Positions 5,334-57,737 of a DNA stretch of 64,000 bases are shown one piece after another. The notes beneath the pieces are model-generated. The model did not search any database. It was not told the DNA's origin and worked only from the letters and a program-made list of their open reading frames with translations. Numbering within the stretch: the stretch's first letter is position 1; each line of letters opens with the position of its first letter. The position numbers and the translations under genes were made by a program. Origin of the DNA: Candidatus Limnocylindrales bacterium (GTDB lineage Bacteria > Moduliflexota > Moduliflexia > Moduliflexales > JAUQPW01); contig DATMBG010000051.1 in the NCBI GenBank assembly GCA_035559535.1, positions 1 to 64,000 on the forward strand. Direction: 5' to 3'.

Positions 5334-5385
5334 GTTATCTAACGCTCAGTCAGAGATTCTGACTTTTAGACGTTAGACTTTGGAC
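5334..5385. repeat. Heptad-repeat hairpin H1, just before udgB start
   Basis: The right half reads in 7-base steps (TCTGACT, TTTAGAC, GTTAGAC, TTTGGAC), and the left half (CTAACG...GTCAGA) pairs with it. It ends four bases before the ATG of the uracil-DNA glycosylase gene and so takes up the ribosome-site region; only a weak GGACAGAG is left. Confidence 0.65.
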
Positions 5386-5389
5386 AGAG

Positions 5390-6070
5390 ATGCTTACAAC
5401 TTTAGAAAAACTTCAAGAGGAGATTATTACCTGCCAGAAATGTCCACGGTTGGTCCTGCACCGGGAGCGTATTGCCAGGGAAAAAAAGCCTCAGTACCGG
5501 GATTGGAAGTACTGGGGAAAGCCCATACCGAGTTTTGGAGATCCTGATGCCCGGGTTTTGGTTGTGGGTCTGGCCCCAGCCGCTCATGGAGGAAATCGAA
5601 CCGGACGGATGTTTACCGGGGATAGGAGTGGTGATTTTCTCTATCAAACCCTTTATCGGTTTGGTTTCTCCAATCAACCCACCTCAACCCATGGGGAAGA
5701 CGGCTTAACCCTTTCTGACCTCTATATTACGGCGGTAGTTCGTTGTGCTCCTCCAAATAATAAACCCTTCAGGGAAGAGCTGACAAACTGTCATCCTTAC
5801 TTTCTTCAAGAACTTGAACTGCTTAAGAACGTTCAAGTCGTAGTCGCACTGGGGAGAATTGCCTTTGATGCTTGCCTGAAGGCTTTCCAAAAAAGAGGAA
5901 TTGTCCTCCCTCGTCCCAGGCCTGTGTTTGGGCATGGTTACGTTTATACTTTGGCCCACTCCTTTACTCTGATTGCTTCTTATCATCCCAGCCGTCAGAA
6001 TACTCAAACCGGTCGTTTAACCCAGGAAATGTTCCATGCTATTTTTGAAGAGGTTCGAAGGTGTATTTAA
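5390..6070 (+). CDS. udgB: Type-5 uracil-DNA glycosylase (UdgB)
   Basis: A 226-residue family 5 UDG. It has the type-5 motif GLAPAAHGG (60-68) followed by NRTGRMFTGDRSGDFLY, and the C-terminal motif HPSRQNT (199-205). Cysteines C15, C18, C119 and C134 are placed as the [4Fe-4S] ligands of UDG families 4 and 5. Family 5 enzymes lack the polar catalytic residue of other UDGs and remove uracil, hypoxanthine and other deaminated bases from DNA. A Nudix hydrolase gene lies convergent just downstream. The start codon directly follows hairpin H1 and lacks a clear Shine-Dalgarno site. Confidence 0.92.
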   Translation: MLTTLEKLQEEIITCQKCPRLVLHRERIAREKKPQYRDWKYWGKPIPSFGDPDARVLVVGLAPAAHGGNRTGRMFTGDRSGDFLYQTLYRFGFSNQPTSTHGEDGLTLSDLYITAVVRCAPPNNKPFREELTNCHPYFLQELELLKNVQVVVALGRIAFDACLKAFQKRGIVLPRPRPVFGHGYVYTLAHSFTLIASYHPSRQNTQTGRLTQEMFHAIFEEVRRCI

Positions 6071-6186
6071 AGATTTTTACCGTATTGGCCAATATGGGGT
6101 TAATTTCAAGATTCTTTGCTGGAATTACTTTGAATCCGGGTAACCGGATCGGCTGGTTTACAGGACTCTATCAGAGAACCCGGTAT

Positions 6187-6666
6187 TTAAGTCCTGGTCA
6201 AAAACCCGGCCCAGGTCTGGATAGATTTTTTATACCCTTCCGGCATCTTCAGGTTTTTGACCTCCTCTAGAGTAAAACATCCGACTTCTGTATGTTCTGG
6301 ACTCAGGACGATTTTAGAGAAGGGTCTGGGATAACATCCATAAGTGACAATGAGCACATCAACCCCTTCGTAGATATGATAGACCCAGCTATCCAGGATA
6401 GGTCCTGGGTCTACCACAAGTCCCAGTTCTTCTTCAATTTCCCTCTTAACGCAATCCTGAGGGGTTTCACCGGATTCTAACTTCCCTCCTGGCAGTTCCC
6501 ATTCGTCACGGTCATTCTTTAAGAGAATGACCTGAGGACCCCGAAAAATAACACCTTTTACAGATACCGGGAACCGGTAAGCTTGATTGTCTTGAGGAAT
6601 AGACAAAATTTTTATAAGAGAAGTCGGCAGGCGAGTACGCCTCCGCTTCCAGGTAATAAAGTTCAA
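6187..6666 (-). CDS. Nudix hydrolase
   Basis: A 159-residue single-domain protein with a full Nudix box at residues 61-83: G, then E67, then REIEEELGL. It should hydrolyse a nucleoside-diphosphate-linked compound with Mg2+; the substrate cannot be told. The frame has no upstream ATG. The start given is a TTG at 6666, and no strong ribosome site decides it, so the N-terminal 30 residues are uncertain. It is convergent with udgB, leaving about 115 bases in which I see nothing. Confidence 0.85.
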   Translation of the reverse strand: MNFITWKRRRTRLPTSLIKILSIPQDNQAYRFPVSVKGVIFRGPQVILLKNDRDEWELPGGKLESGETPQDCVKREIEEELGLVVDPGPILDSWVYHIYEGVDVLIVTYGCYPRPFSKIVLSPEHTEVGCFTLEEVKNLKMPEGYKKSIQTWAGFLTRT

Positions 6667-6713
6667 TTTAAATTTTCCCAGCCAGAATAGAAGTAACAGG
6701 GGAGGACCCTATC

Positions 6714-8276
6714 TTATAACATCGCTCCGTAAATCCAGGGGCAGAACTCATCTTCTCCAACCCCTTGCATTTCACTTTTTGTTTGCTTACCGGAGGCAAC
6801 CGCGATGATCTCTTCCAGGATCATAAGGCCTACTTCTCGGACCGAAAGCCCTTCGTAAACCAAGCCGGCATTGATATCCATATCGTCCTTCATGTGGTGG
6901 TAGAGTGGGGAATTGGTGGCTACTTTAATGGAGGGTGCGAGTTTGAATCCAAATACAGATCCGCGGCCTGTGGTAAACACAACGACATTGGCTCCTCCGG
7001 CGACCATACCGGTAACCGTTACGGGATCATAACCTGGTGTATCCATGAGCACGAATCCCTTTTCGGTGATTCTCTCCCCGTAAAGGTAAACGGCATTGAC
7101 CGGAGTGGAACCTCCTTTAGCGATGGCTCCCAGGGATTTTTCGAAAATGGTGGTAAGTCCTCCTCGCTTGTTACCGGGCGCAGGATTATTATCAATTTCT
7201 GCACCCCATTTCCTTGTATATTCTTCCCACCAATGAATTCGCTCTTCCAATTTTTTCGCTACTTCAACACTGCGGGCCCGTTTCATCAGCAGGTGTTCTG
7301 CTCCATACATTTCCGGTGTTTCTGCCAAGATACCGGTTCCTCCATAACGGACAATCTCATCCAGTGCAACTCCCAGTGCCGGATTGGCCGTAATTCCAGA
7401 GTTGGCGTCGCTGCCCCCGCATTTCGTTCCGAGTACAATGTGGGATACCGGTTGCTTCGTTCGTTTATATTCATTGACCCTCGGTAACAGTTCGGCTACT
7501 GCCTTCACACCCGCCTCAATGGTTTTCTGAATTCCACCTTCCTCTTGAATACTCAAAACCTTGGGTAGAGTACTTTCTCCGTTAAGTCCAATCTGAATGA
7601 GTCCCTGATTTTCAATAAGAGCCAGGGGTTGATTAACTTCACAGCCCAACCCGATAAGGATATAGGCTCCTACATTGGGATGCCGGGCCGCATTGGCCAG
7701 GGTCCTTTGAAAGATGTGATATCCCTCCCCGTTGAGGGTAGAACCACAACCACCCTGATGGGTTAAGGCAATCACACCGTCCACATTGGGATAATCCCGG
7801 GAAATATCCTGAAATCTATGAGCAATGGCTTTCGTTGTAAAAGCCGAACAATTTACGCTGGAGACCAGAGCAATATAATTTCGTGTTCCTACTCGTCCGT
7901 CGGCCCGTTTATATCCCATAAAATAACGCATTTCACTCTCGGGATAGTACTCTACGGGTTTTACCTCTGTGGCATATTCATACTGTTTTGCAAGATACTT
8001 CACACCCAGATTATGTACATGAACATGATCTCCCATTTCGATATGGGTCGTAGCATAACCAATGATCTGTCCGTATTTTCTCACGGCATCGTCTTTTTTT
8101 ATAGCCCTTAAAGCTACTTTATGTCCACGGGGGATATCCTGTCTTAATCGGATGGCTTTCCCTTCGTATTCCAGAATCGTTCCGGCAGGTAAAGCTTCCA
8201 TCAGAACTGCCACATCGTCAGCTTCAGGTTTCAGAATAATGGCTTTTTGCTTTAAAAGATATGTATTTGTGCTCAT
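6714..8276 (-). CDS. UxaA family hydrolase (altronate/galactarate dehydratase type), full length
   Basis: A 520-residue protein combining the N-terminal SAF domain (about 1-95, ending around MGDHVHVHNLG) and the catalytic UxaA domain. Family landmarks are GGCGSTLNGEGY, GTKCGGSDANSG and a conserved C-terminal stretch GFKLAPSIKVATNSPLYHHM. Altronate dehydratases (UxaA) and galactarate dehydratases (GarD) remove water from sugar acids to give 2-keto-3-deoxy acids and need Fe2+. No uronate isomerase, oxidoreductase or KDG kinase gene is close, so the substrate is inferred only from the family. The ATG is at 8276, about 30 bases from the hairpin at 8307-8358. Confidence 0.9.
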   Translation of the reverse strand: MSTNTYLLKQKAIILKPEADDVAVLMEALPAGTILEYEGKAIRLRQDIPRGHKVALRAIKKDDAVRKYGQIIGYATTHIEMGDHVHVHNLGVKYLAKQYEYATEVKPVEYYPESEMRYFMGYKRADGRVGTRNYIALVSSVNCSAFTTKAIAHRFQDISRDYPNVDGVIALTHQGGCGSTLNGEGYHIFQRTLANAARHPNVGAYILIGLGCEVNQPLALIENQGLIQIGLNGESTLPKVLSIQEEGGIQKTIEAGVKAVAELLPRVNEYKRTKQPVSHIVLGTKCGGSDANSGITANPALGVALDEIVRYGGTGILAETPEMYGAEHLLMKRARSVEVAKKLEERIHWWEEYTRKWGAEIDNNPAPGNKRGGLTTIFEKSLGAIAKGGSTPVNAVYLYGERITEKGFVLMDTPGYDPVTVTGMVAGGANVVVFTTGRGSVFGFKLAPSIKVATNSPLYHHMKDDMDINAGLVYEGLSVREVGLMILEEIIAVASGKQTKSEMQGVGEDEFCPWIYGAML

Positions 8277-8306
8277 AGTCGAGTTTTTACTTGATGAAGA
8301 TATTAG

Positions 8307-8358
8307 AACGTCTTTAGTCGGTCTGGTTCGGCATTATCCGAAAAGAGACTAAAGCGTT
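8307..8358. repeat. Hairpin in the leader of the uxaA-like gene
   Basis: AACGTCTTTAGTC (8307-8319) pairs with GACTAAAGCGTT (8347-8358) apart from one bulge, and an inner TTCGG/CCGAA pair extends the stem. It lies between the end of the GT87 gene and the start of the uxaA-like gene on the same strand. It could end transcription of the first or control the second; there is no T-tract. Confidence 0.4.
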
Positions 8359-8417
8359 ACTTTTCAAAATATAGGCCATGATAAACAAACTACTCTAAAG
8401 ATATTCTAAGGGGGTAT

Positions 8418-9704: not shown

Positions 9705-9712
9705 TTTCCTTC

Positions 9713-9869
9713 GTTCTCAGATAGAACCCTTATAGAATTGATCTAAAGAACCCCCCCTGGAACCTTTCTCTGGAGTGGATGAGAAAGTTCAACTGGGAGC
9801 CCCTGTCTTCCTGGAAACTTTCCTTCAACTCCCTCGAAGCAAGATTTCCATGGGGTTCTATCCAAGAAC
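9713..9869. repeat. 157-bp element with 17-base terminal inverted repeats
   Basis: GTTCTCAGATAGAACCC (9713-9729) and the complement of 9853-9869 agree at 15 of 17 bases. Inside, AACCTTTCTC pairs with GAGAAAGTT. The element fills nearly the whole spacer between two minus-strand genes. It resembles a small non-autonomous palindromic element; no target duplication was recognised. Confidence 0.45.
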
Positions 9870-9887
9870 GAATTTATTTTGATAGCT

Positions 9888-10091
9888 CTATAGACCCTTA
9901 ATAATTAACGGAACGTTATTTTGACCGGGTTTATTCCTTTTTGTGCCCAGAGAGCTTGCGCACTGGGCGCACAAATATTCAAAGAGTTCACCATCGGGCA
10001 AAACAAGAAGGAGTTTCTCCCTTACCGGCATCGCTCTCCGACACTTGGGACAGTAAAGTGCTGAAGCTTGAAAGTTTTGAAAACTCTCCAT
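9888..10091 (-). CDS. Small zinc-ribbon protein, conserved hypothetical
   Basis: A 67-residue protein with two CxxC pairs (CPKC at 14-17, CAQC at 39-42) around the segment AMPVREKLLLVLPDGELFEY. I recall similar small proteins in environmental bacteria annotated only as cytoplasmic protein; the function is unknown. The two CxxC pairs 25 residues apart suggest a bound zinc ion. No Shine-Dalgarno site precedes the ATG at 10091, where hairpin H2 begins six bases upstream. Confidence 0.7.
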   Translation of the reverse strand: MESFQNFQASALYCPKCRRAMPVREKLLLVLPDGELFEYLCAQCASSLGTKRNKPGQNNVPLIIKGL

Positions 10092-10096
10092 TTCTT

Positions 10097-10149
10097 TTAT
10101 CCGTTGTCCGTTGTAAAAATACCTATACCCAAAACAACGGATAACGGAC
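10097..10149. repeat. Heptad-repeat hairpin H2, just before the zinc-ribbon gene
   Basis: The near arm reads TTATCCG TTGTCCG TTGT and the far arm (10134-10149) contains ACAACGGATAACGGAC, so the arms pair. The 7-base word TTGTCCG also builds hairpin H4 at 23107-23166, 13 kb away. It begins six bases upstream of the start codon on the minus strand. Confidence 0.75.
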
Positions 10150-10173
10150 CCTTGACTACCAGGACCAGTTAGA

Positions 10174-11463
10174 CTAAAAACCGGGTATCAAATTTCCTTC
10201 TGAATCAAAGGCGAGTTCTCCCAACTCTTTGACAAGCATCAAGTCACTTCGAGATTCGAGTTCTTTCCGATAAGCCTCAGAGACAATAACTTCTCCCAGG
10301 ACCAGGGTATTTTTGATCCAGATTATCTTGGCGTTTTCAGGTTCTATCAAACCGATGGTATTGAGAGCCACATCAATGGCTTCTCGATCTGTATCAAAGG
10401 TCATGGGGAAGCGGGCCACTTCAGGAGCTATTCCAGTAATGCAGTTAATATAGGTTGCTCTGGGATCTATTTTATTGATCAAACGGCGCGTGGTAAAATC
10501 GGCAAAGCCTATTCCAGTTGCATTGCCGTGGGTATCTTCGGTAAGGTCCCGGACGAAGATGCGTTTGATTTTAGGTTTTTCGTGGGGTTTTTCGGTCAGA
10601 TTCATAATGCGTCCATGGACATTGGGATCCATACCCGCCCCGCTAATATCCTTTCCCATTTCGTCCACAATGAGTATATCGACCACATCAAAAGGAAGGT
10701 GGGCCAGGTATTTGCTGGCCTGCCGCTCAAGTTCCAATTCGGTTTCTACGAGATTCTCCGGAAGGACTGCAACGATATTGGCGGTTTCATCATAGCTGTT
10801 CTCTACAATGCCGACTCCAAAGAGAATTTTGCCTGTCTCCAGGACCTTTTGGGCCACTTTTTTAATTACGTTGGCATAACCAAAGCTGACAAAGGCTTTA
10901 TGATAAAGGAGAGCGCCGACGTGCTTTCCCAGGCCAATATTCATCATTTTCTGTAATCCACTTCCCAAATCTCCAGTAAAATCTGTGTGGGGTTTTATCC
11001 GATTAATAACTACCACATGATCGGCTTCATAGGCGTATTTATCCATGTAGACCGGAATCCTGGGTCCCAGTTCGGTCATTTCACTCACCTGAACCACTTC
11101 CATGGTGGCACGAATAGGTACTCCCATAGTCTCTTCGGTGATTCCGTATCGTGCGAGAACCTCTTTTTGGCCCTCCGGGGTTGCTCCCCCATGGCTTCCC
11201 ATAGCCGGAATAATAAAAGGTTTAGCCCCCATCTGTTTGAGTTCAGAAACAGTTGCACGTACCACTTTGGCAATATCCCTAATTCCTCGACTTCCGGCTG
11301 CAACGGCCACACTGGCACCGGGTTTTATCCTTGACCTTACGTTAATTCGGGCTATTTCCTCTGCAACTCGACCCGGAACATCCTCCACCTTCGGAACCTC
11401 AAATTTTTGAAAAATCTTCAGCATTTTGGGATACTTAATATCAGGATAATGAATTAGAGCCAT
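10174..11463 (-). CDS. LarA-like nickel-dependent racemase family protein (DUF2088)
   Basis: A 429-residue protein with a DUF2088/LarA-type N-terminal domain: VAVAAGSRGIRDIAKVVRA (about residues 53-71), IPAMGSHGGATPEGQ and INRIKPHTDFTGDLGSGLQKM. LarA is the lactate racemase that carries a nickel-pincer cofactor, and related proteins racemise other 2-hydroxy acids; the substrate here is unknown. The start is set by a strong GGAGGAAAC site directly before the ATG at 11463. The frame runs further upstream but without a ribosome site. No larB, larC or larE gene is in the window. Confidence 0.75.
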   Translation of the reverse strand: MALIHYPDIKYPKMLKIFQKFEVPKVEDVPGRVAEEIARINVRSRIKPGASVAVAAGSRGIRDIAKVVRATVSELKQMGAKPFIIPAMGSHGGATPEGQKEVLARYGITEETMGVPIRATMEVVQVSEMTELGPRIPVYMDKYAYEADHVVVINRIKPHTDFTGDLGSGLQKMMNIGLGKHVGALLYHKAFVSFGYANVIKKVAQKVLETGKILFGVGIVENSYDETANIVAVLPENLVETELELERQASKYLAHLPFDVVDILIVDEMGKDISGAGMDPNVHGRIMNLTEKPHEKPKIKRIFVRDLTEDTHGNATGIGFADFTTRRLINKIDPRATYINCITGIAPEVARFPMTFDTDREAIDVALNTIGLIEPENAKIIWIKNTLVLGEVIVSEAYRKELESRSDLMLVKELGELAFDSEGNLIPGF

Positions 11464-11673
11464 TTTAGTTTCCTCCCCATGTATAAAGTTAAAAAAGTTT
11501 TTATCGTATTCTACCCTATTCCCCACTATAGTCTCTGTTGAACAGAGTGTCAACAGCCAAAGTAAGAACATCCAAATTTCGATATAAGTCAGGAGATACC
11601 GCTTCGGGGGTCTTTTAGCCCCAACGGGGCGACTTGTTTATAGAAGTTATCTTTCCTCTCTCAGGCCACTCCT

Positions 11674-11702
11674 GTAGGGGTAGGTTTTAAACCTGCCCCT
11701 AC
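11674..11702. repeat. GTAGGGG-type palindrome P1
   Basis: A 29-base near-perfect palindrome with ends GTAGGGG and CCCCTAC and the inner part TAGGTTTTAAACCTG. It belongs to the dispersed family also seen at 18310, 31303, 49433, 49505 and 61782. A separate small hairpin (GCCCC AAC GGGGC) lies at about 11618-11630. Confidence 0.8.
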
Positions 11703-11763
11703 TTAAGTTTCAGTTTTGAGATGGTTCTTAGTTCCCCGGGTAAAAACAATCCATCAGTTACCT

Positions 11764-12690: not shown

Positions 12691-12694
12691 GATT

Positions 12695-13057: not shown

Positions 13058-13089
13058 TTTTACAATTCCAACATTCTATCTCCGTAGAT

Positions 13090-18309: not shown

Positions 18310-18339
18310 GTAGGGGCGGCCATAAGGGATTGCCCCTAC
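18310..18339. repeat. GTAGGGGC-type palindrome P2
   Basis: Ends GTAGGGGC and GCCCCTAC enclose a less symmetric centre. It lies 38 bases after the mltD-like gene in the 325-base spacer before glyS. I see nothing else in that spacer apart from the glyS ribosome site. Confidence 0.65.
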
Positions 18340-22265: not shown

Positions 22266-22274
22266 GGAAGTGTG

Positions 22275-22385
22275 GAAGTATGGGGGTGTGGGAGTATGGG
22301 GATGGGGAAGTATAAGTACTTATTTTCGTATGCCCTCCATACCCCTACACTCCTATACCCCCACACTCCCACACCCCCATACTTC
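22275..22385. repeat. Heptad-repeat hairpin H3 between convergent genes
   Basis: Left arm 22275-22301 and right arm 22359-22385 match at 26 of 27 bases. The left arm and its continuation are made of G-rich words with a step near seven (AGTATGG, GGGTGTG, GGAGTAT, GGGGATG). It lies between the ends of the helical-repeat gene and scpA and may act as a terminator for both. Confidence 0.75.
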
Positions 22386-22388: not shown

Positions 22389-23105
22389 TTATTCCCCTTC
22401 CTGCCTGCGATGGATCCAGATCTCTCCACAAAATTCCGATTGGCTGAGAAAGATCTGACCCAATTTTGCCAGTTCTAAGATTCCGAGAAATAGCACGATG
22501 AGTTCGACCTTATGAAGCGTGTTTTTAAGCAGGGTGGTAAAAGAAAGGGAAGGAGTGGTTTCAAGGATCTCCAACAACTCAATCATTTTTTGTTGAATAT
22601 CAATTCGTTCTACTTCCACCCGATAAGGGGTCTGAGCTTCTAGAGACTTCAAAGCCTTATGAAAGGCCGAAATCAAGTCAAATAAACTGACTTCAAACTC
22701 ATACTCGATTTCTACATCGGGTCGCTCTTCTGGAAGAGGTTCTCTGACATAGAGTTGACTTTGATAGGTATCTAATTCCTCCAGTTTCAGAGCCAGTTCT
22801 CGAAATTTCTGATACTCTACGAGCTTCTGAACCAATTCCGTTCTGGGATCTTCCTCTTCCGGATTTTCTGCTTGAACCTGGGGTAACAGCATCCGTGACT
22901 TAATATGGAGGAGTGTAGCCGCCATAACCAGGAACTCTCCGGCTATTTCCAGGTTTAACTCTTTCATGGCCTCTAAATACTCCAGATATTGATGGGTTAT
23001 AAGGGCGATGGGAATATCGGAGATATCGATTTTGTTCTTTTTGATGAGATGTAAGAGCAGATCCAGGGGACCTTCGTAAATGGGTAATTTGATATTATAA
23101 GGCAT
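22389..23105 (-). CDS. scpA: Segregation and condensation protein A
   Basis: A 238-residue kleisin. It has the ScpA opening YNIKLPIYEGPLDLLLHLI and KNKIDISDIPIALITHQYLEY, followed by AGEFLVMAATLLHIKSRMLLP. The C-terminal winged helix (SFTTLLKNTLHKVELIVLFLGILELAKLGQI) binds the SMC head. ScpA with ScpB and SMC forms the bacterial condensin for chromosome segregation. scpB, often next door, is not in the window. The start MPYNIKLP at 23105 fits the family. The frame extends upstream only through hairpin H4, and no Shine-Dalgarno site is present. Confidence 0.95.
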   Translation of the reverse strand: MPYNIKLPIYEGPLDLLLHLIKKNKIDISDIPIALITHQYLEYLEAMKELNLEIAGEFLVMAATLLHIKSRMLLPQVQAENPEEEDPRTELVQKLVEYQKFRELALKLEELDTYQSQLYVREPLPEERPDVEIEYEFEVSLFDLISAFHKALKSLEAQTPYRVEVERIDIQQKMIELLEILETTPSLSFTTLLKNTLHKVELIVLFLGILELAKLGQIFLSQSEFCGEIWIHRRQEGE

Positions 23106-23106: not shown

Positions 23107-23166
23107 GTCTTGTCCGTTGTCCGTTGTCCATTGCCAATCATAATGGGCAACAAACAACGGACAATC
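23107..23166. repeat. Heptad-repeat hairpin H4, just before scpA
   Basis: The near arm reads GTCTTGT CCGTTGT CCGTTGT CCATTGC, an exact 7-base period. The far arm (23145-23166) has GGGCAACAAACAACGGACAA and pairs with it. It begins two bases upstream of the scpA start codon and shares its word with H2. Confidence 0.85.
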
Positions 23167-23246: not shown

Positions 23247-23807
23247 ATGCAGCCGCATTCCCATGATCCACACCATCGACCTCACCCTTCCCATTCTGAG
23301 AAGGAGAAAATTAAGTTTTGTTATCGTTGTGGAGGTTCTCTCATTGAAAAGTTCCTGACAGAGGAAAACAAACCCAGACTTATATGTAGTCGGTGTGAAC
23401 TGATCGTATATCTGGATCCCAAGGTTGCAACCGGAACCATTCCTCAGAAGGAGGGAAAGATTGTTTTATTGAAGAGAAACATCGAACCTGCACGGGGTAA
23501 GTGGACCTTTCCAGGCGGTTATATGGATCGTGGTGAAGTTGCATCGGAAGCCGCCATCCGTGAAACCAAAGAGGAAATCGGTCTGGATGTCAAAGTAACC
23601 TCGCTTCTAAATGTTTACTCTTACCCGGGTGTGGACGTGATCGTTATAGTTTATCTGGCTGAAATCCTTGGAGGTGAACTTAGTCCAGGTCTGGAAGCTC
23701 AGGAAGTCCGATTCTTCTCTCCAGATGAAATTCCCTGGGAAGAACTGGCTTTTCAAAGTACCCGAGATGCTTTACGAGAGTTATTAAACCGTAACAAGAG
23801 GTATTAA
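23247..23807 (+). CDS. Nudix hydrolase with N-terminal zinc ribbon
   Basis: A protein of about 186 residues. A His-rich tail (HSHDPHHRPHPSH) leads into a zinc ribbon (C25, C28, C47, C50), then a Nudix domain with the box GGYMDRGEVASEAAIRETKE and EEIGL. The ribbon-Nudix layout resembles NADH pyrophosphatase (NudC) and relatives, but the protein is shorter and its substrate is not known. An in-frame GTG at 23241 could add two residues, and no ribosome site separates the choices. The stop lies inside hairpin H5. Confidence 0.88.
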   Translation: MQPHSHDPHHRPHPSHSEKEKIKFCYRCGGSLIEKFLTEENKPRLICSRCELIVYLDPKVATGTIPQKEGKIVLLKRNIEPARGKWTFPGGYMDRGEVASEAAIRETKEEIGLDVKVTSLLNVYSYPGVDVIVIVYLAEILGGELSPGLEAQEVRFFSPDEIPWEELAFQSTRDALRELLNRNKRY

Positions 23808-23876
23808 ACCGTAAAATGTAAAGCGTAAAACCCACACGAAGATCCTACCTTACGGGTTACGTATTACGGTTTAATG
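23802..23876. repeat. Heptad-repeat hairpin H5 between Nudix and GST genes
   Basis: The left arm has the words CGTAAAA TGTAAAG CGTAAAA, and the right arm CGGGTTA CGTATTA CGGTTTA, both with a 7-base period. TTAAACCGTAA pairs with TTACGGTTTAA. It contains the stop of the Nudix gene and ends four bases before the GST ATG. Confidence 0.8.
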
Positions 23877-30355: not shown

Positions 30356-31108
30356 CTAAAACCAGGATGACCGGATTCCAACCTCATCCAGGTGGCGCAA
30401 CAGGTCCGCAGGATCTTGATAAACCCGATAAGCCCCTGCACGTTCCAGTTCCTCCTGACCGTAACCTCCTGAAAGTAAGCCAACCCCCAAAGCCCTGGCA
30501 CGGCGAGCGGCCAGGAGGTCCCAGACACTATCCCCTACTACAATCGAGTCACTTAGGGATACTCCCAGACGTTCGGCAGCAGCCAAAAATAAGTCCGGAT
30601 CCGGCTTGGCATGCTGAACCAGGTCCCGGGTGATGACGGGTACTTCAGGACCTATTCCAAGAATTTCCAGTGTAGGGCCTGCGCTCTCCCACCGCCCACT
30701 GGTCGCAATAGCCCACGGTACTCCAATTTGTGAGAGATAGCTTAAGAGCTTTCTGGCACCGGGAAGCGGACGAACCTGTTTTATTTTTTGAGCATAGGCT
30801 TTTGCGTGTAACTGCTGGAGTCGTGCCGCTTCTTCCGCAGTCACCTGACGACCGGTTTCCCGTAGAAGCGCATTCAACAACAACCCTCCGCTCATTCCAA
30901 TCCGACGATGGATACGCCACACAGATAGTTCGATACCGGCTTCCTCCAAGGCTTCCCGCCATGCCAAAACATGCTGATAAACACTATCTACCAAAGTCCC
31001 ATCTAGGTCGAATAAAAAAGCCATTTTACCTCTCAGGGTTGTTGCTTCGTTGGTTTGGTTTTCCATTCCCGGGTGTTGCCCGGAGCTATCTGAAACTGGT
31101 TGATGCAT
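30356..31108 (-). CDS. HAD family hydrolase (phosphoglycolate phosphatase-like)
   Basis: A 250-residue HAD phosphatase with motif I FLFDLDGTLVDS (D34, D36), a helical cap (GMSGGLLLNALLRE), motif II AIATSG, motif III Lys in HAKPDPDLFLAAAERLG, and motif IV IVVGDSVWDLLAARRA. It resembles phosphoglycolate or beta-phosphoglucomutase-type HADs; the substrate is not known. The start is fixed by AAGGAGGAAC before the ATG at 31108, which leaves a polar tail of about 28 residues before the HAD core. Confidence 0.88.
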   Translation of the reverse strand: MHQPVSDSSGQHPGMENQTNEATTLRGKMAFLFDLDGTLVDSVYQHVLAWREALEEAGIELSVWRIHRRIGMSGGLLLNALLRETGRQVTAEEAARLQQLHAKAYAQKIKQVRPLPGARKLLSYLSQIGVPWAIATSGRWESAGPTLEILGIGPEVPVITRDLVQHAKPDPDLFLAAAERLGVSLSDSIVVGDSVWDLLAARRARALGVGLLSGGYGQEELERAGAYRVYQDPADLLRHLDEVGIRSSWF

Positions 31109-31244: not shown

Positions 31245-31405
31245 GTTTATTTAGTTTTACTTGACTTTTAAGTAGCCCTCACCCCCTGTCCCCCTCTCCT
31301 GTGTAGGGGCGGGAGGCCTCCCGCCCCTACGGAGAGGGGGAACTGGGGGGCTAGGGGGGGGATGGGGGTGAGGGTCGCTTAAAAGTTAAGCAAAACTAAG
31401 TAAAC
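31245..31405. repeat. 161-bp nested palindromic element with 28-base terminal inverted repeats
   Basis: The ends 31245-31272 and 31378-31405 are inverted repeats matching at 25 of 28 bases. Inside lies CCCTCACCCCC paired with GGGGGTGAGGG, then CCCCCTCTCC paired with GGAGAGGGGG, and at the centre the perfect palindrome P3. The whole element can fold into one long stem. No open reading frame of note and no clear target duplication were seen. Confidence 0.75.
31303..31330. repeat. GTAGGGGC-type palindrome P3 (perfect, 28 bp)
   Basis: Ends GTAGGGGC and GCCCCTAC with inner GGGAGGCCTCCC; every base pairs. It sits at the centre of the 161-bp element. Confidence 0.9.
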
Positions 31406-39704: not shown

Positions 39705-40089
39705 ACCGTCCGGGATTCCCTGCGGGTACCCATACTTGATGCTCTGGAACCCATTGCCCATTGACCCACTGCCCGGGAATGGTTACCCAACGACCGTAGC
39801 CTGGAGTATAAGCAGAATAACCCAGATCAGGACCGGCCGGCGGGGGACTGTAACGATAGCCGTATCTTTGAGCATCATAGGTATCCATGGCATTTCCTAT
39901 TACAGCCCCGGTTAATCCACCTAACGCCGTACCGATTAAGGTGCTCTCAGTAGTATGTCCAATGGCTTGACCGGCTAAGGCTCCAGCTCCAGCACCTATG
40001 GCGGCTCCAGTTTGGGTACGGTATCCAGCACAACCCACCACCCAGAGTAAAACACCCATAATTAACAAAATTAAATTGGATCTTCTCAT
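39703..40089 (-). CDS. Glycine-zipper lipoprotein
   Basis: A 128-residue lipoprotein with lipobox VVGC (C20), a glycine-zipper segment (TGAAIGAGAGALAGQAIG and LIGTALGGLTGAVIGNAM) and a Tyr/Pro-rich tail ending in WVNGQWVPEHQVWVPAG. Such outer-membrane proteins (compare YMGG-like families) are small stress or envelope proteins. AGGAGGC supports the ATG. It ends in a very strong terminator, suggesting high expression. Confidence 0.85.
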   Translation of the reverse strand: MRRSNLILLIMGVLLWVVGCAGYRTQTGAAIGAGAGALAGQAIGHTTESTLIGTALGGLTGAVIGNAMDTYDAQRYGYRYSPPPAGPDLGYSAYTPGYGRWVTIPGQWVNGQWVPEHQVWVPAGNPGR

Positions 40090-43233: not shown

Positions 43234-43308
43234 CAGGTGTCAGAAATCGGGAATTCAGAGGCTAGAGACCCTGGGGTCTCTAATTTCTGGCTTTCGGCTT
43301 CTGACTTC
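43234..43308. repeat. Heptad-repeat hairpin H6 at the start of the YfhO-like gene
   Basis: The right arm has the words TCTCTAA TTTCTGG CTTTCGG CTTCTGA CTT. The left arm holds GTCAGAA...CAGAGGC, and AGAGACCC pairs with GGGTCTCT in the middle. It starts seven bases after the methyltransferase stop. The reading frame of the next gene stays open through it. Confidence 0.75.
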
Positions 43309-43324
43309 CAAAGATATCCTCGTC

Positions 43325-49432: not shown

Positions 49433-49460
49433 GTAGGGGCATACAGCCGTATGCCCCTAC
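49433..49460. repeat. GTAGGGGC-type palindrome P4
   Basis: Ends GTAGGGGC and GCCCCTAC, inner ATACAGCCGTAT, with one mismatch at the centre. The inner part is one base different from P5, 44 bases away. Confidence 0.88.
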
Positions 49461-49504: not shown

Positions 49505-49532
49505 GTAGGGGCATACGGCCGTATGCCCCTAC
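49505..49532. repeat. GTAGGGGC-type palindrome P5 (perfect, 28 bp)
   Basis: Ends GTAGGGGC and GCCCCTAC, inner ATACGGCCGTAT, fully self-complementary. Confidence 0.9.
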
Positions 49533-50500: not shown

Positions 50501-50503
50501 AAT

Positions 50504-50568
50504 GACAGAAGTCACAAGTCAGAGGCCAAAAGCTGAACGGTTTTCTGATTCCTGACTTCTGACCTCTG
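50504..50568. repeat. Heptad-repeat hairpin H7, just before the epimerase
   Basis: Plus-strand words ACAGAAG TCACAAG TCAGAGG on the left and, complemented, CAGAGGT CAGAAGT CAGGAAT on the right. The left arm ends three bases from the minus-strand start codon. Confidence 0.8.
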
Positions 50569-50644
50569 TTTAAATGTTTTTCAACATATTGAAATAATCA
50601 GCAAAGGGCAAGGGATATTCACCCGGATATCAAACCTCTTGCTG

Positions 50645-51589: not shown

Positions 51590-51590
51590 C

Positions 51591-51663
51591 GAACAGCAAA
51601 CAATGAACACTAAACAATCAACACGGAATCCCCGCTAATTGTTCAGGATTGCTCATTGTTAAG
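51591..51663. repeat. Heptad-repeat hairpin H8, just before the UXS gene
   Basis: Left arm in words of seven: AACAGCA AACAATG AACACTA AACAATC AACACGG. The right arm (51636-51663) contains TAATTGTTCAGGATTGCTCA and pairs loosely with it. It starts two bases upstream of the start codon and ends six bases before the stop of ugd. Confidence 0.85.
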
Positions 51664-51669
51664 GAAGGG

Positions 51670-52971: not shown

Positions 52972-52975
52972 TCTT

Positions 52976-53038
52976 AAAAAGTGAAAGGTAGAAGGCAAAA
53001 AGGTAAAATCACCCTGTGCCTTGCTCCTTTCACCTTGC
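52976..53038. repeat. Heptad-repeat hairpin H9, just before ugd
   Basis: The right arm, read as complement, gives AAGGTGA AAGGAGC AAGGCAC AGGG, a 7-base period. The left arm GTGAAAGGTAGAAGGCAAAA pairs with its complement. Only three bases separate it from the end of the gene upstream. Confidence 0.8.
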
Positions 53039-53041
53039 GAG

Positions 53042-55390
53042 CTAATACGCACCTTTTCCCCGTAAAGCCACAGGGATTGTCCTCAAAATGATCTTTAGGT
53101 CATTGGAAAGGGACCAGTTTCGTATATAGTATAAATCTAGTTTGACCATCTCGTTAAAACTTAATCCACTCCGTCCACTTACTTGCCAAAGCCCTGTGAT
53201 ACCCGGTTTAACCCATAACCGCCGGTATTGCCACTCCTGGTACCGGGCTACTTCATCGGGTAAAGGTGGTCGAGGTCCGACCAGACTCATCTCGCCTTTA
53301 ATTACGTTAATCAACTGAGGTAACTCGTCCAGACTAAACCGCCTGAGAATTTTTCCGACCTTCGTTAATCTGGGATCCTCCCGGATCTTGAATAAAGGCC
53401 CATCTGCCTCGTTGAGATGCTCAAGAAATTCCCTTTGTTCTTCTGCTTCTTTATACATGGACCGAAATTTGTACATCAAAAATCGCCGCCGGTTTTGACC
53501 AACCCTTTCTTGCCGAAACAAAACAGGCCCCGGAGACTCCCACTTGATCAAGATTCCTATAGCGAGAAGTAGTGGGGACAAAAGAACAAGCCCGGTTAAG
53601 GAGAGGATCAAATCTAAAGCCCGTTTAAGAAAAAGATTAATCCCATGAAGGGGATCTGCTTCAAAGGTAATGGTGGGAATACCAGCCAGTTCCTCGATAG
53701 TAGCCCGGGGGGTTAAAATTTCACTCACATCTGTTACAACGCGAACATGGAGGGTTTCTGTACCATTCTTAGCTATCAGGTTAAAAATCTCGTCTTGCAA
53801 AGGATCTAACTCTGTTACGATCACCTCGTTGATTTTCTGATCTGTAACCAGATGAGGAAGATCTTTGAGGGTACCCAATATGGGAAGGGTTGACAGAGGA
53901 GTCGCTGAGAATCTGGACCCGGGGGAGATCTGGTATTTTTCCTCCTTACCTCCATTCTTAGTTTCTTTGCCTTCAGGCTTTCCGGGCATGGCCACAAATC
54001 CTACCACGTCATACCCCAATTCCCGATGTTTATCCAGTTCTTTTTTCAAACTGGAAGCTTCTAAACCGGTTCCTAAAATAAGAACTCGTTTTAAATCGAA
54101 ACCTTGCTTCCGTAAAAATCTGAAAACACCCACCAGGGTCCAGCGAAACAAAAAGGCAAAACCGCTTCCAAGGATTCCAAAAATAAGGGTGATGGACCGG
54201 GAAAACTCATAACCCTGGGTCAAATAAGTACCTGCCATAATCATAAGGCAACTGATTCCCATGGCTTTAAGGACCCGGAAGAGTTCATCAACCCAAAGAA
54301 GTCCCCTCGGAAATTTATATAAGTGAAGAAAATGAAAAACCGTTAGAGTCGTGACATTAATAAAAATCAAAAAGTCTCTATAAATCCAGAAGGGAAGATC
54401 CGGTTTTTCTAAAAAAAGTCCTATTCCGTCGGATAGACCCAGGGCGAGACTTTTTCTCAGTTGATAAGCCCCATAAAAAGAAAGATTAACCACAAGTATA
54501 TCCGAGATGACAAATACCGTATGGGTCAGGAGGCTGTTATATTTGCGAAGAAAATACATGAGATCGCTCCATTTATCGAAAAAATGAAGCATACTTCGAA
54601 GATGAGAGAAAAAGGTTCGATGGGTCGGTCCTCGGGCACTCTCCCGCCGGTGCTGATGGATCATCTCAGCATGGGGAAAATAGCAAACCTTCCAACCCCC
54701 TTTTTTCATCCGGTAACACCAGTCTACATCCTCAAAGTAAAGAAAGAATCGCTCATCCATACTCCCCACATCTTCCAGCGCCTTCCGTCGTACCAACATG
54801 CAGGCCCCTAAAACCCAATCCACTTCCCGAACAGAGGCATGATCCCAATCCATCATCAAATGATTTCGTACGATCTTACTATCGGGAAACAGTCTGCGAA
54901 GAGGAGTTCTTCTCAAAAGGAGCGTCCTGAAAGTATAAAAAGTTCGACAGGAGTACTGTAACGTACCATCCGGATTGAGAAGCTTTCCTCCTACGATACC
55001 TACCTGCTGGTTTTCATCCATAAACTGAACCATCCGCTCAATGGCGCCAGGTTTTACCTGAACATCAGGATTCATCAGCAGGAGATATTCCCCCTCGGCT
55101 ATCCGGATACCCTGGTTGATCGCACGGGCATAACCTACGTTGGTTTCGTTGATCAGTAGCTGTACCTCCGGAAATTTTCCACGAACCATTTCTACCGATC
55201 CATCCTCAGAATGGTTATCGATAACGATAATCTGTCGGTTGGCCGTTGTTCCCGGTCCATAGTTCATGGTTTGTGAAGTAACCGCAACTTCCTCGTCCGG
55301 ATCCTCAGGACGATCGGCCAGAATCGAGTTTAAACAAAGCTCCAGCAAATCCTTTGTTTTATAATTGACGATAATAATAGAGAGCTTCAT
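53042..55390 (-). CDS. Fusion: GT2 glycosyltransferase + polyprenyl glycosylphosphotransferase
   Basis: A 782-residue two-enzyme protein. Residues 1-270 are a GT2 transferase: SIIIVNYKTKDLLELCL, IVIDNHSEDGS, the nucleotide-sugar site LLLMNPDVQV and LYFEDVDWCYRM. Residues 290-435 are four to five membrane helices, 440-570 a Rossmann-like domain, and 590-782 the phosphoglycosyltransferase (WbaP/ExoY type): FLKRALDLILSLTGLVLLSP, MYKFRSM, RFSLDELPQLINVIKGEMS and VGPRPPLPDEV. The C-terminal enzyme should load the first sugar phosphate onto undecaprenyl phosphate, and the N-terminal enzyme could add a later sugar. Fusion of the two is unusual. Confidence 0.9.
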   Translation of the reverse strand: MKLSIIIVNYKTKDLLELCLNSILADRPEDPDEEVAVTSQTMNYGPGTTANRQIIVIDNHSEDGSVEMVRGKFPEVQLLINETNVGYARAINQGIRIAEGEYLLLMNPDVQVKPGAIERMVQFMDENQQVGIVGGKLLNPDGTLQYSCRTFYTFRTLLLRRTPLRRLFPDSKIVRNHLMMDWDHASVREVDWVLGACMLVRRKALEDVGSMDERFFLYFEDVDWCYRMKKGGWKVCYFPHAEMIHQHRRESARGPTHRTFFSHLRSMLHFFDKWSDLMYFLRKYNSLLTHTVFVISDILVVNLSFYGAYQLRKSLALGLSDGIGLFLEKPDLPFWIYRDFLIFINVTTLTVFHFLHLYKFPRGLLWVDELFRVLKAMGISCLMIMAGTYLTQGYEFSRSITLIFGILGSGFAFLFRWTLVGVFRFLRKQGFDLKRVLILGTGLEASSLKKELDKHRELGYDVVGFVAMPGKPEGKETKNGGKEEKYQISPGSRFSATPLSTLPILGTLKDLPHLVTDQKINEVIVTELDPLQDEIFNLIAKNGTETLHVRVVTDVSEILTPRATIEELAGIPTITFEADPLHGINLFLKRALDLILSLTGLVLLSPLLLAIGILIKWESPGPVLFRQERVGQNRRRFLMYKFRSMYKEAEEQREFLEHLNEADGPLFKIREDPRLTKVGKILRRFSLDELPQLINVIKGEMSLVGPRPPLPDEVARYQEWQYRRLWVKPGITGLWQVSGRSGLSFNEMVKLDLYYIRNWSLSNDLKIILRTIPVALRGKGAY

Positions 55391-55419
55391 TAATTAGTCC
55401 CTATTCGATGGTTTTTATA

Positions 55420-56733
55420 TTAGATAATAAGCTCCGGACAACGGCTGAAGATAGCCGATCCCACCTTTTTATATCCATTATATCTGAGAACGTTATACAG
55501 GACCCGGAGGTAAAAGCTTATCAATCTACCTGTTTTAGGAAAGAAAGCCGATGAATGAGTCTGTTTCGGGTTTAAACAGAATATTTCTAAGGGTTGAAGG
55601 ACCGAAGGCCAGGAGAACTTATCGGCAATTCGACGTACATTGGCTCGACATTGCTCAACCTTTTCGGGATGGTCTGCCAATTCCAATATAGCCGCCTTCA
55701 TTTGATCTACAGATTCCGGGTCGACCGTGATGCCTAAACCCTCTTTTTCGATCAAATCACCCCAGAAATCTCCTCTGGTAGCGATAACAGGTAGCCCACA
55801 CCACAGGTAATCTAAAATGCGAGTCCTCCCTGCCAGACGAGACTCGAAGCTTGCAAAATGGGTACTGATCCCTATATCGGCTTCTAGAAGATAGTTCTGC
55901 CGCTCTTGATAAGGAATCCACTGCTCGGTGAAGAACACATACCGATCATATAATCCTAACTCCTGGCTGAGTTTAAGAATCTCTTTATGGGACTGGGGAA
56001 CGGGATCCTCTATCTTACCTAAAAAAACCAGTTTAATATCTGAACGTATCCGATGAATCTCATGAACTGCCCTTATAACTATGCAAGGATCAAACCAACT
56101 CCAGAGCCCCCCACCCCATAAAATCACCTTATCTGAGGCTGAGATTCCTTTCCTTACCCCCTTGAGAACCTGCTGGGTATGGACCGGTTTTTCAGCCGGT
56201 AATCCAAAGGGAACCGGTTGAATCAATTTTTTCAACTCCGGATCTTCTCGATAAAGTTCATGGGTGATTCTTCCCCAGGCGGCCAGCATCCCGATCCAAA
56301 AATCCCGTTGTCGCTCATGACTACAAATAAAAAAATCCCCTCGATTTAAGAGCAATTGAACCCGAGCTAAATAATAGGCCAGGGATAACCGGGCTTCCGA
56401 TAGGGAAGAACTCCTGTGATGCTCCAGGAGTTCTATAGGCAAAGGAGCATAGAGATCTACGACTAGAGGCTTTTGAGAAAGAAAAATCAAATCTAGAGGG
56501 AATTTGTACCCTGTTGTCACAATGACATCCGCCCAGCCTAACCACCGCTTCAAGTTCTTCCGGGTCGTCTTAAAAATTTGAAATTTAGCAGAGATGAGAT
56601 CCGTCTCACCTGGAACCAACAGAACCACGGCGTGTTTTTCGGCAAGGTAAGTGGCCATTTCCCAGTATCGTATTCCAGGCCCGGTCATCCGTTGATTCAC
56701 CGGGTTTGAACTGATCAGCAGAACGGAACTCAT
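55420..56733 (-). CDS. GT-B glycosyltransferase (GT4-like)
   Basis: A 437-residue GT-B protein. N-terminal domain: VLLISSNPVNQRMTGPGIRYWEMA; C-terminal domain: VILWGGGLWSWFDPCIVIRA, the FLGKIEDPVP segment, IGISTHFASFESRLAGRTRILDYLWCGLPVI and TRGDFWGDLIEKEGLGITV. The ...FESRLAGRTRILDYLWCGLPV region is where GT4 enzymes bind the donor. The sugar is unknown. Its ATG overlaps the stop of the upstream peptidase gene (ATGA), and H10 precedes it. Confidence 0.87.
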   Translation of the reverse strand: MSSVLLISSNPVNQRMTGPGIRYWEMATYLAEKHAVVLLVPGETDLISAKFQIFKTTRKNLKRWLGWADVIVTTGYKFPLDLIFLSQKPLVVDLYAPLPIELLEHHRSSSLSEARLSLAYYLARVQLLLNRGDFFICSHERQRDFWIGMLAAWGRITHELYREDPELKKLIQPVPFGLPAEKPVHTQQVLKGVRKGISASDKVILWGGGLWSWFDPCIVIRAVHEIHRIRSDIKLVFLGKIEDPVPQSHKEILKLSQELGLYDRYVFFTEQWIPYQERQNYLLEADIGISTHFASFESRLAGRTRILDYLWCGLPVIATRGDFWGDLIEKEGLGITVDPESVDQMKAAILELADHPEKVEQCRANVRRIADKFSWPSVLQPLEIFCLNPKQTHSSAFFPKTGRLISFYLRVLYNVLRYNGYKKVGSAIFSRCPELII

Positions 56734-57737
56734 GACATATGGGAACGGGGAGGTAGGGAGGGGTATGGGTGCGGGGTTACAGGAATTTCATCTCTACCTC
56801 CATACTCTTCTACTTTCCTATCCTCTTCTTCCCAGGTCTTTTCTATTTCTCTCATCTTTCGTTTCTTAAAAAGATAAGCCCCGAAGAAAATGAGTGTAAT
56901 AAGACCCCAGAGCACGGTTATACTGGTTACAACGGGAATCCAGGAATGCTTCTCCCTGAGGTTTCGCTGCCAGTCTTGTTCCAATGTGTTCAAATCTACA
57001 CCTGTCGCTCTCCGCAGAGCCGTTTCCGGACTTACTCCCTCTCCCAGGTTCTTGATAAGCCGATGAAGTGCATCTTTCCCGTAGGTATTCAGAATATAGG
57101 TCACCAGACTCAGGCTCTGGGCGTAGGCAATTCGAGCTTGTGCTGCATCGGACGGGAAAGAAAGGGTGAGCTCAGAGAGAGGGATAAAATTCTCTAAAAG
57201 TGCCACTTCCTGAAGGGTCATCTCCTCCGGAACTCCCCATTCTTTGGCTTCATACATGGCAAATCCTTCTGAAAGCCATCGGGGTGCTCCACCTATAGAT
57301 TCTAAAGCCTGTTCGAGGGCAATATGGGCAAACTCATGTTTAAAAAGTTGAAGGGGATCCAGAACCTGACCGTTAATAACCAGAGAAGATCGCATGACAA
57401 TCCGATTTAAGGATGGATAAGCTACCCCCACGGCCCAATGTGGAACATCCTGAGAATAGGGTTGTTTCTCCTTAAAACAGGTCTCAGTAGGGCAGAGATA
57501 AACCGAGATTTTTGCCTTGGGTCTATACCCCAGATCCTCGGTTACCTCCTCGTAAATTTTATCTACCTTAAGACTCAAGAACTCCACCAACTTCTGGTTC
57601 TCTCCAAGATAATGGAGGTAAAAATGCCGGGTAGACCGGGTCTTCCATTCCTCCGCAAAGGCCGGAAGTGTTCCTATACCCCCTAGAAAAAATAGGATTA
57701 AAAGAATCTCTATCCGGCTATTTCCTTTAAGTTTCAT
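56730..57737 (-). CDS. Gluzincin-type metallopeptidase (Peptidase_MA-like), membrane-anchored
   Basis: A 335-residue protein. Signal peptide (1-28, ending AFA), zinc site HEFAH (H134, E135, H138) and third ligand Glu in WLSEGFAMYEA (E157) as in gluzincins with HExxH...E. A membrane segment follows at about 269-290 (VVTSITVLWGLITLIFFGAYL), and a charged cytoplasmic tail. The tail (about 305-335), with VEEYGGRDEIPVTPHPYPSL, is encoded by repeat H10 and probably is not an old part of the protein. The start ATG overlaps the thioesterase stop by 11 bases. Its target is unknown. Confidence 0.85.
   Translation of the reverse strand: MKLKGNSRIEILLILFFLGGIGTLPAFAEEWKTRSTRHFYLHYLGENQKLVEFLSLKVDKIYEEVTEDLGYRPKAKISVYLCPTETCFKEKQPYSQDVPHWAVGVAYPSLNRIVMRSSLVINGQVLDPLQLFKHEFAHIALEQALESIGGAPRWLSEGFAMYEAKEWGVPEEMTLQEVALLENFIPLSELTLSFPSDAAQARIAYAQSLSLVTYILNTYGKDALHRLIKNLGEGVSPETALRRATGVDLNTLEQDWQRNLREKHSWIPVVTSITVLWGLITLIFFGAYLFKKRKMREIEKTWEEEDRKVEEYGGRDEIPVTPHPYPSLPPRSHMS
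56738..56838. repeat. Heptad-repeat hairpin H10, inside the end of the peptidase gene
   Basis: A G-rich arm (TATGGGA ACGGGGA GGTAGGG AGGGGTA TGGGTGC) at 56738-56776 and a pyrimidine-rich arm (CTACCTC CATACTC TTCTACT TTCCTAT, from 56794). Both have a step of about seven. It ends five bases before the start of the glycosyltransferase gene, yet it is translated as the tail of the peptidase protein. Confidence 0.65.

What the first reader, a model, noticed from the sequence alone, without database searches (positions are those of the whole stretch)
5334..56838. Heptad hairpins sit in place of the Shine-Dalgarno site
Nine of the twelve sites lie within about six bases upstream of a start codon: udgB (4), zinc-ribbon gene (5), scpA (1), GST (4), epimerase (3), UXS (1), ugd (4), GT-B (4) and the U32-like gene (about 4). 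None of these starts has a usable Shine-Dalgarno sequence, while genes without a hairpin often have strong ones (GGAGGAAAC at 11463, AAGGAGGAAC at 31108, AGGAGGC at 40089). Either the element inserts into this spot, or the hairpin arm itself helps start translation or regulates it. I know of no described element with this placement.
Basis: partly seen in the sequence, partly recalled or inferred. Interest (0 to 1): 0.85.

Follow-up and report, generated by a model that had tools for sequence, protein, structure and literature searches.

The report
Seven-base repeat hairpins filling gene gaps
This bacterium carries many palindromes built of seven-base repeats that fill the short gap between the stop codon of one gene and the start codon of the next, so they do sit where a ribosome-binding site would be, but they hug the stop codon just as closely and resemble repeats already described in cyanobacteria and other bacteria.

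Summary
The hairpins are real and close to start codons, but 'at the start codon' is half the picture. A 1.26-Mb sample (22%) of the genome gave 44 heptad hairpins. Of 39 analysed, 32 lie between co-oriented genes, 29 are within 15 nt of a start, 27 within 15 nt of a stop, 20 both; random insertion predicts 2.7, 2.6 and 0.2. In tandem gaps 20 of 32 are closer to the stop: they fill the intercistronic gap. Shine-Dalgarno (SD) 4-mers precede 2 of 27 downstream genes against 57 of 187 controls (p=0.011), but a stricter 5-mer measure shows no significant difference (3/27 vs 41/187, p=0.31). Arm mismatches are strand-blind (G.T 34, A.C 33), unlike other tandem-gap hairpins (91:55), so an RNA-level regulator is not supported. 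In a sister species 35 of 38 aligned true heptad sites keep a hairpin. The GTCAGAA unit recurs between genes in cyanobacterial plasmids. Similar heptamers at starts and stops are published (PMC4692102, PMC4679880). Best reading: old, handed heptad palindromes tolerated in operon gaps; scarce SD is a by-product.

The parts
5338..5377 (.). heptad hairpin (GTCAGAG/TTCTGAC, TCTAACG/CGTTAGA) 5' of udgB ATG 5390; partly decayed in sister
   Evidence: sister alignment
10100..10148 (.). heptad hairpin, TTGTCCG unit, 5' of 67-aa zinc-ribbon-like ORF (ATG 10091, - strand; no Pfam hit)
22266..22370 (.). octad hairpin (GTATGGGA/GTGTGGGA unit) between convergent genes, not near a start; length and order changed in sister
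23110..23164 (.). heptad hairpin, TTGTCCG unit, 4-5 nt 5' of scpA ATG 23105 (- strand)
23803..23875 (.). heptad hairpin, CGTAAAA unit, overlapping stop codon of upstream gene and ending 5 nt before GST ATG 23881
43239..43305 (.). heptad hairpin, GTCAGAA unit, in the gap before a YfhO-like gene (start uncertain)
50505..50569 (.). heptad hairpin, GTCAGAA unit, ending about 5 nt from epimerase ATG 50500 (- strand); lag-7 score 18
51599..51660 (.). heptad hairpin, AACAATC-type unit, 9 nt from UXS ATG 51589 (- strand), filling most of the gap to stop 51670
52978..53036 (.). heptad hairpin, AAAGGTG unit, filling the gap between stop 53042 and ugd ATG 52971 (- strand)
56737..56811 (.). weak octad-like palindrome before GT-B ATG 56733 (- strand); also codes for the C-terminal tail of the upstream peptidase-like ORF
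   Evidence: z only -1.4

Best explanation
The elements are handed palindromes of tandem heptamers (and sister octamers), members of the broad class of bacterial heptameric repeats. They occupy, and largely fill, the gap between the stop codon of one gene and the start codon of the next co-oriented gene, leaving a median of 13 nt of other sequence. Shown: the gap filling, fixed handedness in the four unit families tested, strand-blind mismatches, and persistence at most of the same sites in a sister species; shown by one of two measures: fewer SD sequences downstream. Inferred: they arose by repeat slippage and fold-back or by dispersal of ready-made arms, and persist where an insert damages neither a coding sequence nor a promoter. 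Also inferred: because they fold out in the mRNA they bring stop and start back to normal operon spacing, so the downstream gene can be started by reinitiating ribosomes without its own SD. The missing SD is then a consequence of gap filling rather than evidence of a dedicated regulator.
For: Gap filling against random insertion: near start 29/39 (expected 2.7), near stop 27/39 (2.6), both 20/39 (0.2), tandem 32/39 (22.0). Median residual spacer 13 nt over 27 tandem gaps under 130 nt; stop side 8 nt or less in 20 of 27, start side 5-13 nt in 16 of 27. Periods 7 and 8 stand out. G.T:A.C mismatches 34:33 (heptads), 78:76 (octads), against 91:55 in other tandem-gap hairpins, p=0.004; pooled repeats differ from the others, p=0.03. 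Handedness 20:0 over the four unit families tested. Purine-rich 5' arm in 33/42 heptad and 33/36 octad hairpins. Sister genome: 41 of 42 heptad-class loci aligned; 35 still give a hairpin with 7-nt periodicity by relaxed thresholds; three of the six failures are GC-rich palindromes mis-scored as heptads.
Against: Arms diverge less than loops between sister species (6.7% vs 16.0%; intergenic 12.1%, third codon positions 14.1%), which could mean selection on the structure; other hairpins show the same contrast (7.4% vs 19.4%). Choosing hairpins by their pairing in one genome hides changes on that lineage (73 WC-to-mismatch against 22 the other way), and I estimate a corrected arm rate near 9%, so weak selection remains possible. 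New breaks lean to G.T (27:14, p=0.06). The SD difference vanishes with a 5-base criterion (p=0.31). The fold-out reinitiation step has no direct evidence. Starts come from my own gene finder for most of the 39 loci; in 9 of the 29 near-start cases the called start lies inside or beyond the hairpin, and 8 of the 27 near-stop cases overlap the called gene end.
Confidence: 0.65

Rival explanations
1. RNA-level translational regulator: the hairpin or its 3' arm is recognised by the ribosome, S1 or another RNA-binding protein and replaces or controls the Shine-Dalgarno site of the downstream gene.
For: SD 4-mers 2/27 vs 57/187; start side 5-13 nt in 16 of 27 tandem gaps; pyrimidine-rich 3' arm in most; a similar proposal exists for TAACTGA repeats (PMC4679880 section 25); new breaks lean G.T 27:14.
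Against: Standing mismatches show no mRNA-strand bias (34:33; octads 78:76) while other tandem-gap hairpins do; stop codon proximity equally strong; only 2 compensatory double changes among 825 pairs; 33 different commonest units among 42 hairpins, some of them variants of each other; the octad site 22266-22370 lies between convergent genes with no start nearby; SD difference not significant with a 5-base criterion.
Confidence: 0.15
2. Post-stop element acting on the upstream gene: hairpin within about 15 nt of the stop codon slows the terminating ribosome or protects the upstream 3' end from exonucleases, as proposed for REP sequences near stop codons (recalled, not read here).
For: 27 of 39 within 15 nt of a stop, 20 of 32 tandem sites closer to the stop than to the start.
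Against: Same strand-blindness; start proximity equally enriched; not tested by any expression data.
Confidence: 0.12
3. Mobile palindrome (REP/MITE-like) with insertion preference for the gap next to a start codon.
For: Dispersed copies per unit family, e.g. the TTGTCCG array with up to one mismatch at about 24 places (37 overlapping hits); at C51:451501 the sister has a 42-base-shorter, unrelated stretch with no hairpin, a possible unoccupied or decayed site; the GTAGGGGC palindromes of the same genome do show unoccupied sites in the sister.
Against: 35 of 38 aligned true heptad sites keep a hairpin in the sister; no Y1/RAYT transposase match in G000 or G001; arms are mosaics of varying units. 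Target-site duplications were not looked for.
Confidence: 0.08

Closest known systems
GGGAATC / GGGGA(T/C)T heptameric repeats of Xanthomonas and Nostoc (Rehm et al. 2015, PMC4692102; outline with abstract, sections 10, 11, 13, 14, 16 and passages read)
   Same: 7-nt units; mostly between aligned ORFs, rare between divergent ones; within 50 bp of the start on the antisense strand and of the stop on the sense strand (our purine 5' arm, pyrimidine 3' arm); 70 and 75 facing pairs in two Xanthomonas genomes; [quoted passage not shown]
   Different: One G-rich, quadruplex-forming unit there; here many units, most without G-tracts, as hairpins that often fill the whole gap; octads as well
TAACTGA direct repeats of Beggiatoaceae (MacGregor 2015, PMC4679880; outline with abstract, sections 3, 7, 9, 11, 13, 24, 25 read)
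   [quoted passage not shown] SD rare there; also present in Cyanobacteria
   Different: One unit, direct repeats mostly in one orientation, no predicted hairpin; no start-stop gap filling reported in the sections read
Heptad arrays of heterocystous Cyanobacteria (STRR and tRNA-Leu intron heptads are recalled, not read; arrays seen here in plasmid records)
   Same: Identical GTCAGAA unit; facing TTCTGAC arm downstream in five of eight gaps printed; array fills a 38- to 41-nt gap in Nostoc and Trichormus plasmids
   Different: Different phylum; three of the eight gaps hold direct arrays only; the gap-filling examples look like one homologous gene pair
REP / RAYT palindromes
   Same: Dispersed intergenic palindromes close to stop codons
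   Different: No RAYT match in the genome; tandem heptads in the arms; most sites shared with the sister species

Membership tests
Bacterial heptameric simple-sequence repeats | tandem 7-nt unit, over-represented against other unit lengths | tested here: met
   45 arrays of period 7 and 71 of period 8 vs 2-6 for periods 5, 6, 9, 10, 11
Bacterial heptameric simple-sequence repeats | intergenic, mainly between aligned ORFs | tested here: met
   41 of 44 intergenic; 32 of 39 between co-oriented genes
Xanthomonas/Nostoc GGGNATC repeats | purine-rich strand sense near stop, antisense near start | tested here: met
   5' arm purine-rich in 33/42 and 33/36; the TTGTCCG family is an exception
Xanthomonas/Nostoc GGGNATC repeats | G-tracts able to form quadruplexes | tested here: not met
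   26 of 33 commonest-unit classes hold no GGG or CCC; G4 formation itself not tested
TAACTGA repeats | unit TAACTGA as direct repeats | tested here: not met
   TAACTGA is not among the 33 commonest units of 42 heptad hairpins; direct TAACTGA arrays were not searched for genome-wide
TAACTGA repeats | array ends a few nt upstream of a start, SD rare | tested here: inconclusive
   start proximity met; SD rarer by 4-mers (p=0.011), not by 5-mers (p=0.31)
REP / RAYT | cognate Y1 (RAYT) transposase in the genome | tested here: not met
   PF01797: 0 matches in G000 (95.8% complete) and G001, 12 in same-order G003
Known riboswitch or structured RNA family | match to an Rfam 15 model at the gathering score | tested here: not met
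   0 matches in the window
Translational regulatory RNA hairpin | mRNA-strand G.U preference / compensatory pairs | tested here: inconclusive
   34:33 standing, 27:14 new breaks (p=0.06), 2 compensatory pairs of 825

The most novel reading that the evidence does not exclude
Handed heptad palindromes are a cross-phylum class of fold-out intercistronic linkers: the folded hairpin joins stop and start so that terminating ribosomes restart on a downstream gene that has lost its Shine-Dalgarno site, and the same units have spread between Cyanobacteria and this deep-branching lineage.
Probability: 0.17. Interest if true: 0.8.

Novelty: new member of a known kind. Interest (0 to 1): 0.45.

Why it matters
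It joins two published but separate observations (heptamers replacing SD at starts; heptamers hugging stops in the opposite strand sense) into one structure, a palindrome spanning the stop-to-start gap. It adds a distant lineage that shares a unit with Cyanobacteria. It also gives a cheap strand test (G.T versus A.C mismatches) that separates RNA-level hairpins from DNA-level palindromes and can be run on any genome. If the fold-out linker idea held, it would be a structure-based route to SD-free translation inside operons.

Tried and rejected
Rejected: placement specific to start codons (stop proximity equal). Rejected: one single repeat family (33 commonest units among 42 hairpins). Rejected: RAYT/REP origin. 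Rejected: known Rfam RNA. Rejected: merging the GTAGGGGC palindromes with the heptads; they are a different, apparently more mobile family. Considered and tempered: purifying selection on arms. The raw rate (6.7% vs 16% loops, 12.1% intergenic) looks strong, but picking hairpins by pairing in one genome hides changes on that lineage (73 vs 22). A test within the same gaps (random slot for each hairpin) gave fewer hairpins within 10 nt of a start than random (14 vs 21.6) because they fill the gap, so I used a random-insertion null instead. SD depletion: significant with 4-mers, not with 5-mers.

Rows dropped before counts: three GC-rich palindromes mis-scored as heptads (C51:428303, C21:180475, C40:17670) left out of the 39 and of the 38 sister alignments; one heptad hairpin inside a called gene and one re-classed with the GTAGGGGC group are also outside the 39. 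The sister counts use 36 loci and also leave out C51:451501 and C12:80111 (altered in the sister); C40:112372 aligned only partly. The rates use all heptad-class hairpins that the sister alignment covers. The purine count (42 hairpins) and the unit list include the three GC-rich ones; the tandem-gap counts do not, since all three lie outside tandem gaps.

Led nowhere: literature search for the repeat strings themselves (0 papers); two Anabaena plasmid accessions not held; TTGTCCG array found only in two Streptomyces plasmids; G002 sample without heptad hairpins (0 in 240 kb) and G003 with 6 in 315 kb; by the same hairpin criteria two cyanobacterial plasmid pieces of 94 kb together gave only two AT-rich period-7 and two period-8 hairpins; one search crashed on a script error and was rerun.
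Full report
WHAT IS THERE. The window is the start of a 520,766-base contig of a 5.6-Mb draft genome. In the window I confirm eight hairpins whose arms are tandem 7-mers and two whose arms are 8-mers, one of these weak. The units differ from site to site: TTGTCCG at 10100 and 23110, GTCAGAA at 5338, 43239 and 50505, CGTAAAA at 23803, AAAGGTG at 52978, AACAATC-like at 51599. RNA folding of nine of ten sites is 3.7 to 8.5 s.d. below mononucleotide shuffles; the GT-B site is only 1.4 below.

STARTS CHECKED. Several ScpA relatives align from residues 1-5 of the protein starting at 23105. With these starts the last base pair of the hairpin is 5-6 nt from the start at four genes (scpA, GST, epimerase, ugd), 8-12 nt at four (zinc ribbon, UXS, GT-B, udgB), and 19 nt at the YfhO-like gene, whose TTG start is uncertain.

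GENOME SAMPLE. I took 1.26 Mb of the 5.6 Mb, window included, called genes with a hexamer-based finder that uses neither SD nor hairpins to choose starts, and detected hairpins with a gapped extension that counts only Watson-Crick pairs. Of 350 hairpins, 44 passed as heptads, 41 of them intergenic, although intergenic DNA is 16% of the sample. Among tandem arrays scored without regard to hairpins, period 7 gives 45 and period 8 gives 71, other periods from 5 to 11 give 2-6 each. Of the 36 intergenic period-7 arrays 17 lie in a detected hairpin and 19 do not; some of the 19 look like arms of hairpins with longer loops, but I did not test that.

PLACEMENT. In 32 tandem cases the heptad hairpin is closer to the start in 12 and closer to the stop in 20. 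For 27 tandem gaps under 130 nt, the median non-hairpin remainder is 13 nt. Under random insertion into all gaps, 39 elements would give 2.7 near a start (15 nt or less), 2.6 near a stop and 0.2 near both; observed are 29, 27 and 20. Of these, 9 near-start and 8 near-stop cases have the called gene end inside or beyond the hairpin. Octads are also enriched, less sharply: 14, 14 and 5 of 36.

SHINE-DALGARNO. Using AGGA, GGAG, GAGG or AGGT at -17 to -4, 37% of 973 genes score. Downstream of heptad hairpins in short tandem gaps it is 2 of 27, against 57 of 187 hairpin-free gaps of 41-130 nt (p=0.011). With runs of at least 5 bases of the anti-SD complement it is 3 of 27 against 41 of 187, p=0.31. 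The direction agrees with the observation; the strength depends on the definition. It is explained by lack of room and by the pyrimidine-rich 3' arm (5' arm purine-rich in 33 of 42 heptads and 33 of 36 octads).

RNA OR DNA LEVEL. A transition in a stem gives G.T on one strand and A.C on the other, so selection on an mRNA hairpin should favour G.T on the mRNA strand. Over tandem gaps: heptads 34:33, octads 78:76, GTAGGGGC group 4:10, other hairpins 91:55 (p=0.004); the pooled repeats differ from the others with p=0.03. New breaks in the sister lean to G.T, 27:14, p=0.06. Compensatory double changes are 2 among 825 compared pairs. I read this as no support for a conserved mRNA structure, not as proof of its absence.

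SISTER SPECIES. Anchors for all 37 heptad-class loci outside the window were found in G001. Of 42 loci, 41 aligned. Searching the sister sequence itself with relaxed thresholds, 35 of 41 still hold a hairpin with 7-nt periodicity; the six that do not are the three GC-rich palindromes, C51:74575 and C37:110246 (related sequence present but below the threshold), and C51:451501, where the sister has a 42-base-shorter unrelated stretch without any hairpin, possibly an unoccupied site. Two GTAGGGGC palindromes of the window (49433, 49505) are missing in the sister while the flanks align. Arms differ by 6.7%, loops by 16.0%, other intergenic DNA by 12.1%, third codon positions by 14.1%; arms and loops of other hairpins by 7.4% and 19.4%. 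Because loci were chosen for pairing in one genome, changes on that lineage are under-counted (73 against 22), and I would not claim strong selection from this; a corrected arm rate near 9% is my own rough estimate.

HANDEDNESS. A palindrome reads the same on both strands, so each unit has an absolute hand: it lies in the 5' arm or its complement does. TTGTCCG 6:0, GTCAGAA 5:0, GTAAAAC 4:0, AAAGGCA 5:0, the four families I tested. This is hard to get from independent random origins and suggests shared descent of arms or a constraint on which arm faces the start codon.

OTHER LINEAGES. A four-unit GTCAGAA array finds 36 plasmid records at E up to 1; the ten genera listed are Cyanobacteria, one more is not named in the output. 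In Nostoc sp. ATCC 53789 the array lies in a 38-nt gap between two tandem genes, in Trichormus variabilis plasmid C in a 41-nt gap, in Nostoc sp. C052 in a 38-nt gap. In all three the downstream gene is a 'four helix bundle protein', so these are probably one homologous gene pair, not independent cases. Of 13 small loci fetched I printed eight gaps; by eye five show a facing TTCTGAC arm downstream of the GTCAGAA arm and three are direct arrays only. Across 289 genomes of a relatives-plus-domain sample, nine (the window's own included, the sister not) have GTCAGAAGTCAGAAGTC; the backward control pattern occurs in four. In the same order, a sample of G003 has 6 heptad hairpins in 315 kb and G002 none in 240 kb.

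LITERATURE. [quoted passage not shown] PMC4679880 reports TAACTGA heptamers that end a few nt upstream of starts and overlap the RBS, with SD rare. PMC2408588 (passages only) lists repeats and possible hairpins in the intergenic regions of the Nostoc hyp operon, among them ttgtcagttgtcagttgtca. None of the eight literature searches listed a paper that I recognised as describing this lineage or gap-filling heptad palindromes as such; the library holds open-licence papers only, and I read only parts of the three papers named.

JUDGEMENT. The finding is real, but its framing is narrowed: a known kind of heptameric repeat, here in hairpin form and in many units, fills operon gaps and thereby takes the place of the SD. 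A dedicated translational role is not shown. The fold-out linker, in which the hairpin keeps stop and start at operon distance, is my preferred mechanism for how such inserts are tolerated, and it is inference.

Noticed in passing
window 49433-49460, 49505-49532, 31303-31330, 18310-18339: GTAGGGGC...GCCCCTAC palindromes, 43 places genome-wide, absent from the sister at 49433 and 49505 while the flanks align; a separate, apparently more mobile family with no RAYT (PF01797) match in the genome.
   Followed up: partly
window 22266-22370; 43 in 1.26 Mb of the genome: Octad hairpins (GTATGGGA type) as common as the heptads, purine 5' arm in 33 of 36, changed in length and order between sister species at 22266.
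   Followed up: partly
G000:C51:451501-451590 (L045): The one true heptad locus where the sister has a 42-base-shorter unrelated stretch without a hairpin: candidate unoccupied or decayed site.
   Followed up: partly
window 56730-56811: The octad-like palindrome also encodes the C-terminal tail of the upstream peptidase-like ORF, which overlaps the GT-B start.
   Followed up: no
window 23777-23814: A 20-bp direct duplication at the end of the gene before GST, missing in the sister.
   Followed up: no
Streptomyces sp. NBC_01456 and NBC_01454 plasmids (NZ_CP109456.1, NZ_CP109462.1): Four-unit TTGTCCG arrays, four places in each plasmid, no annotated feature under the best match.
   Followed up: no
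   Followed up: no
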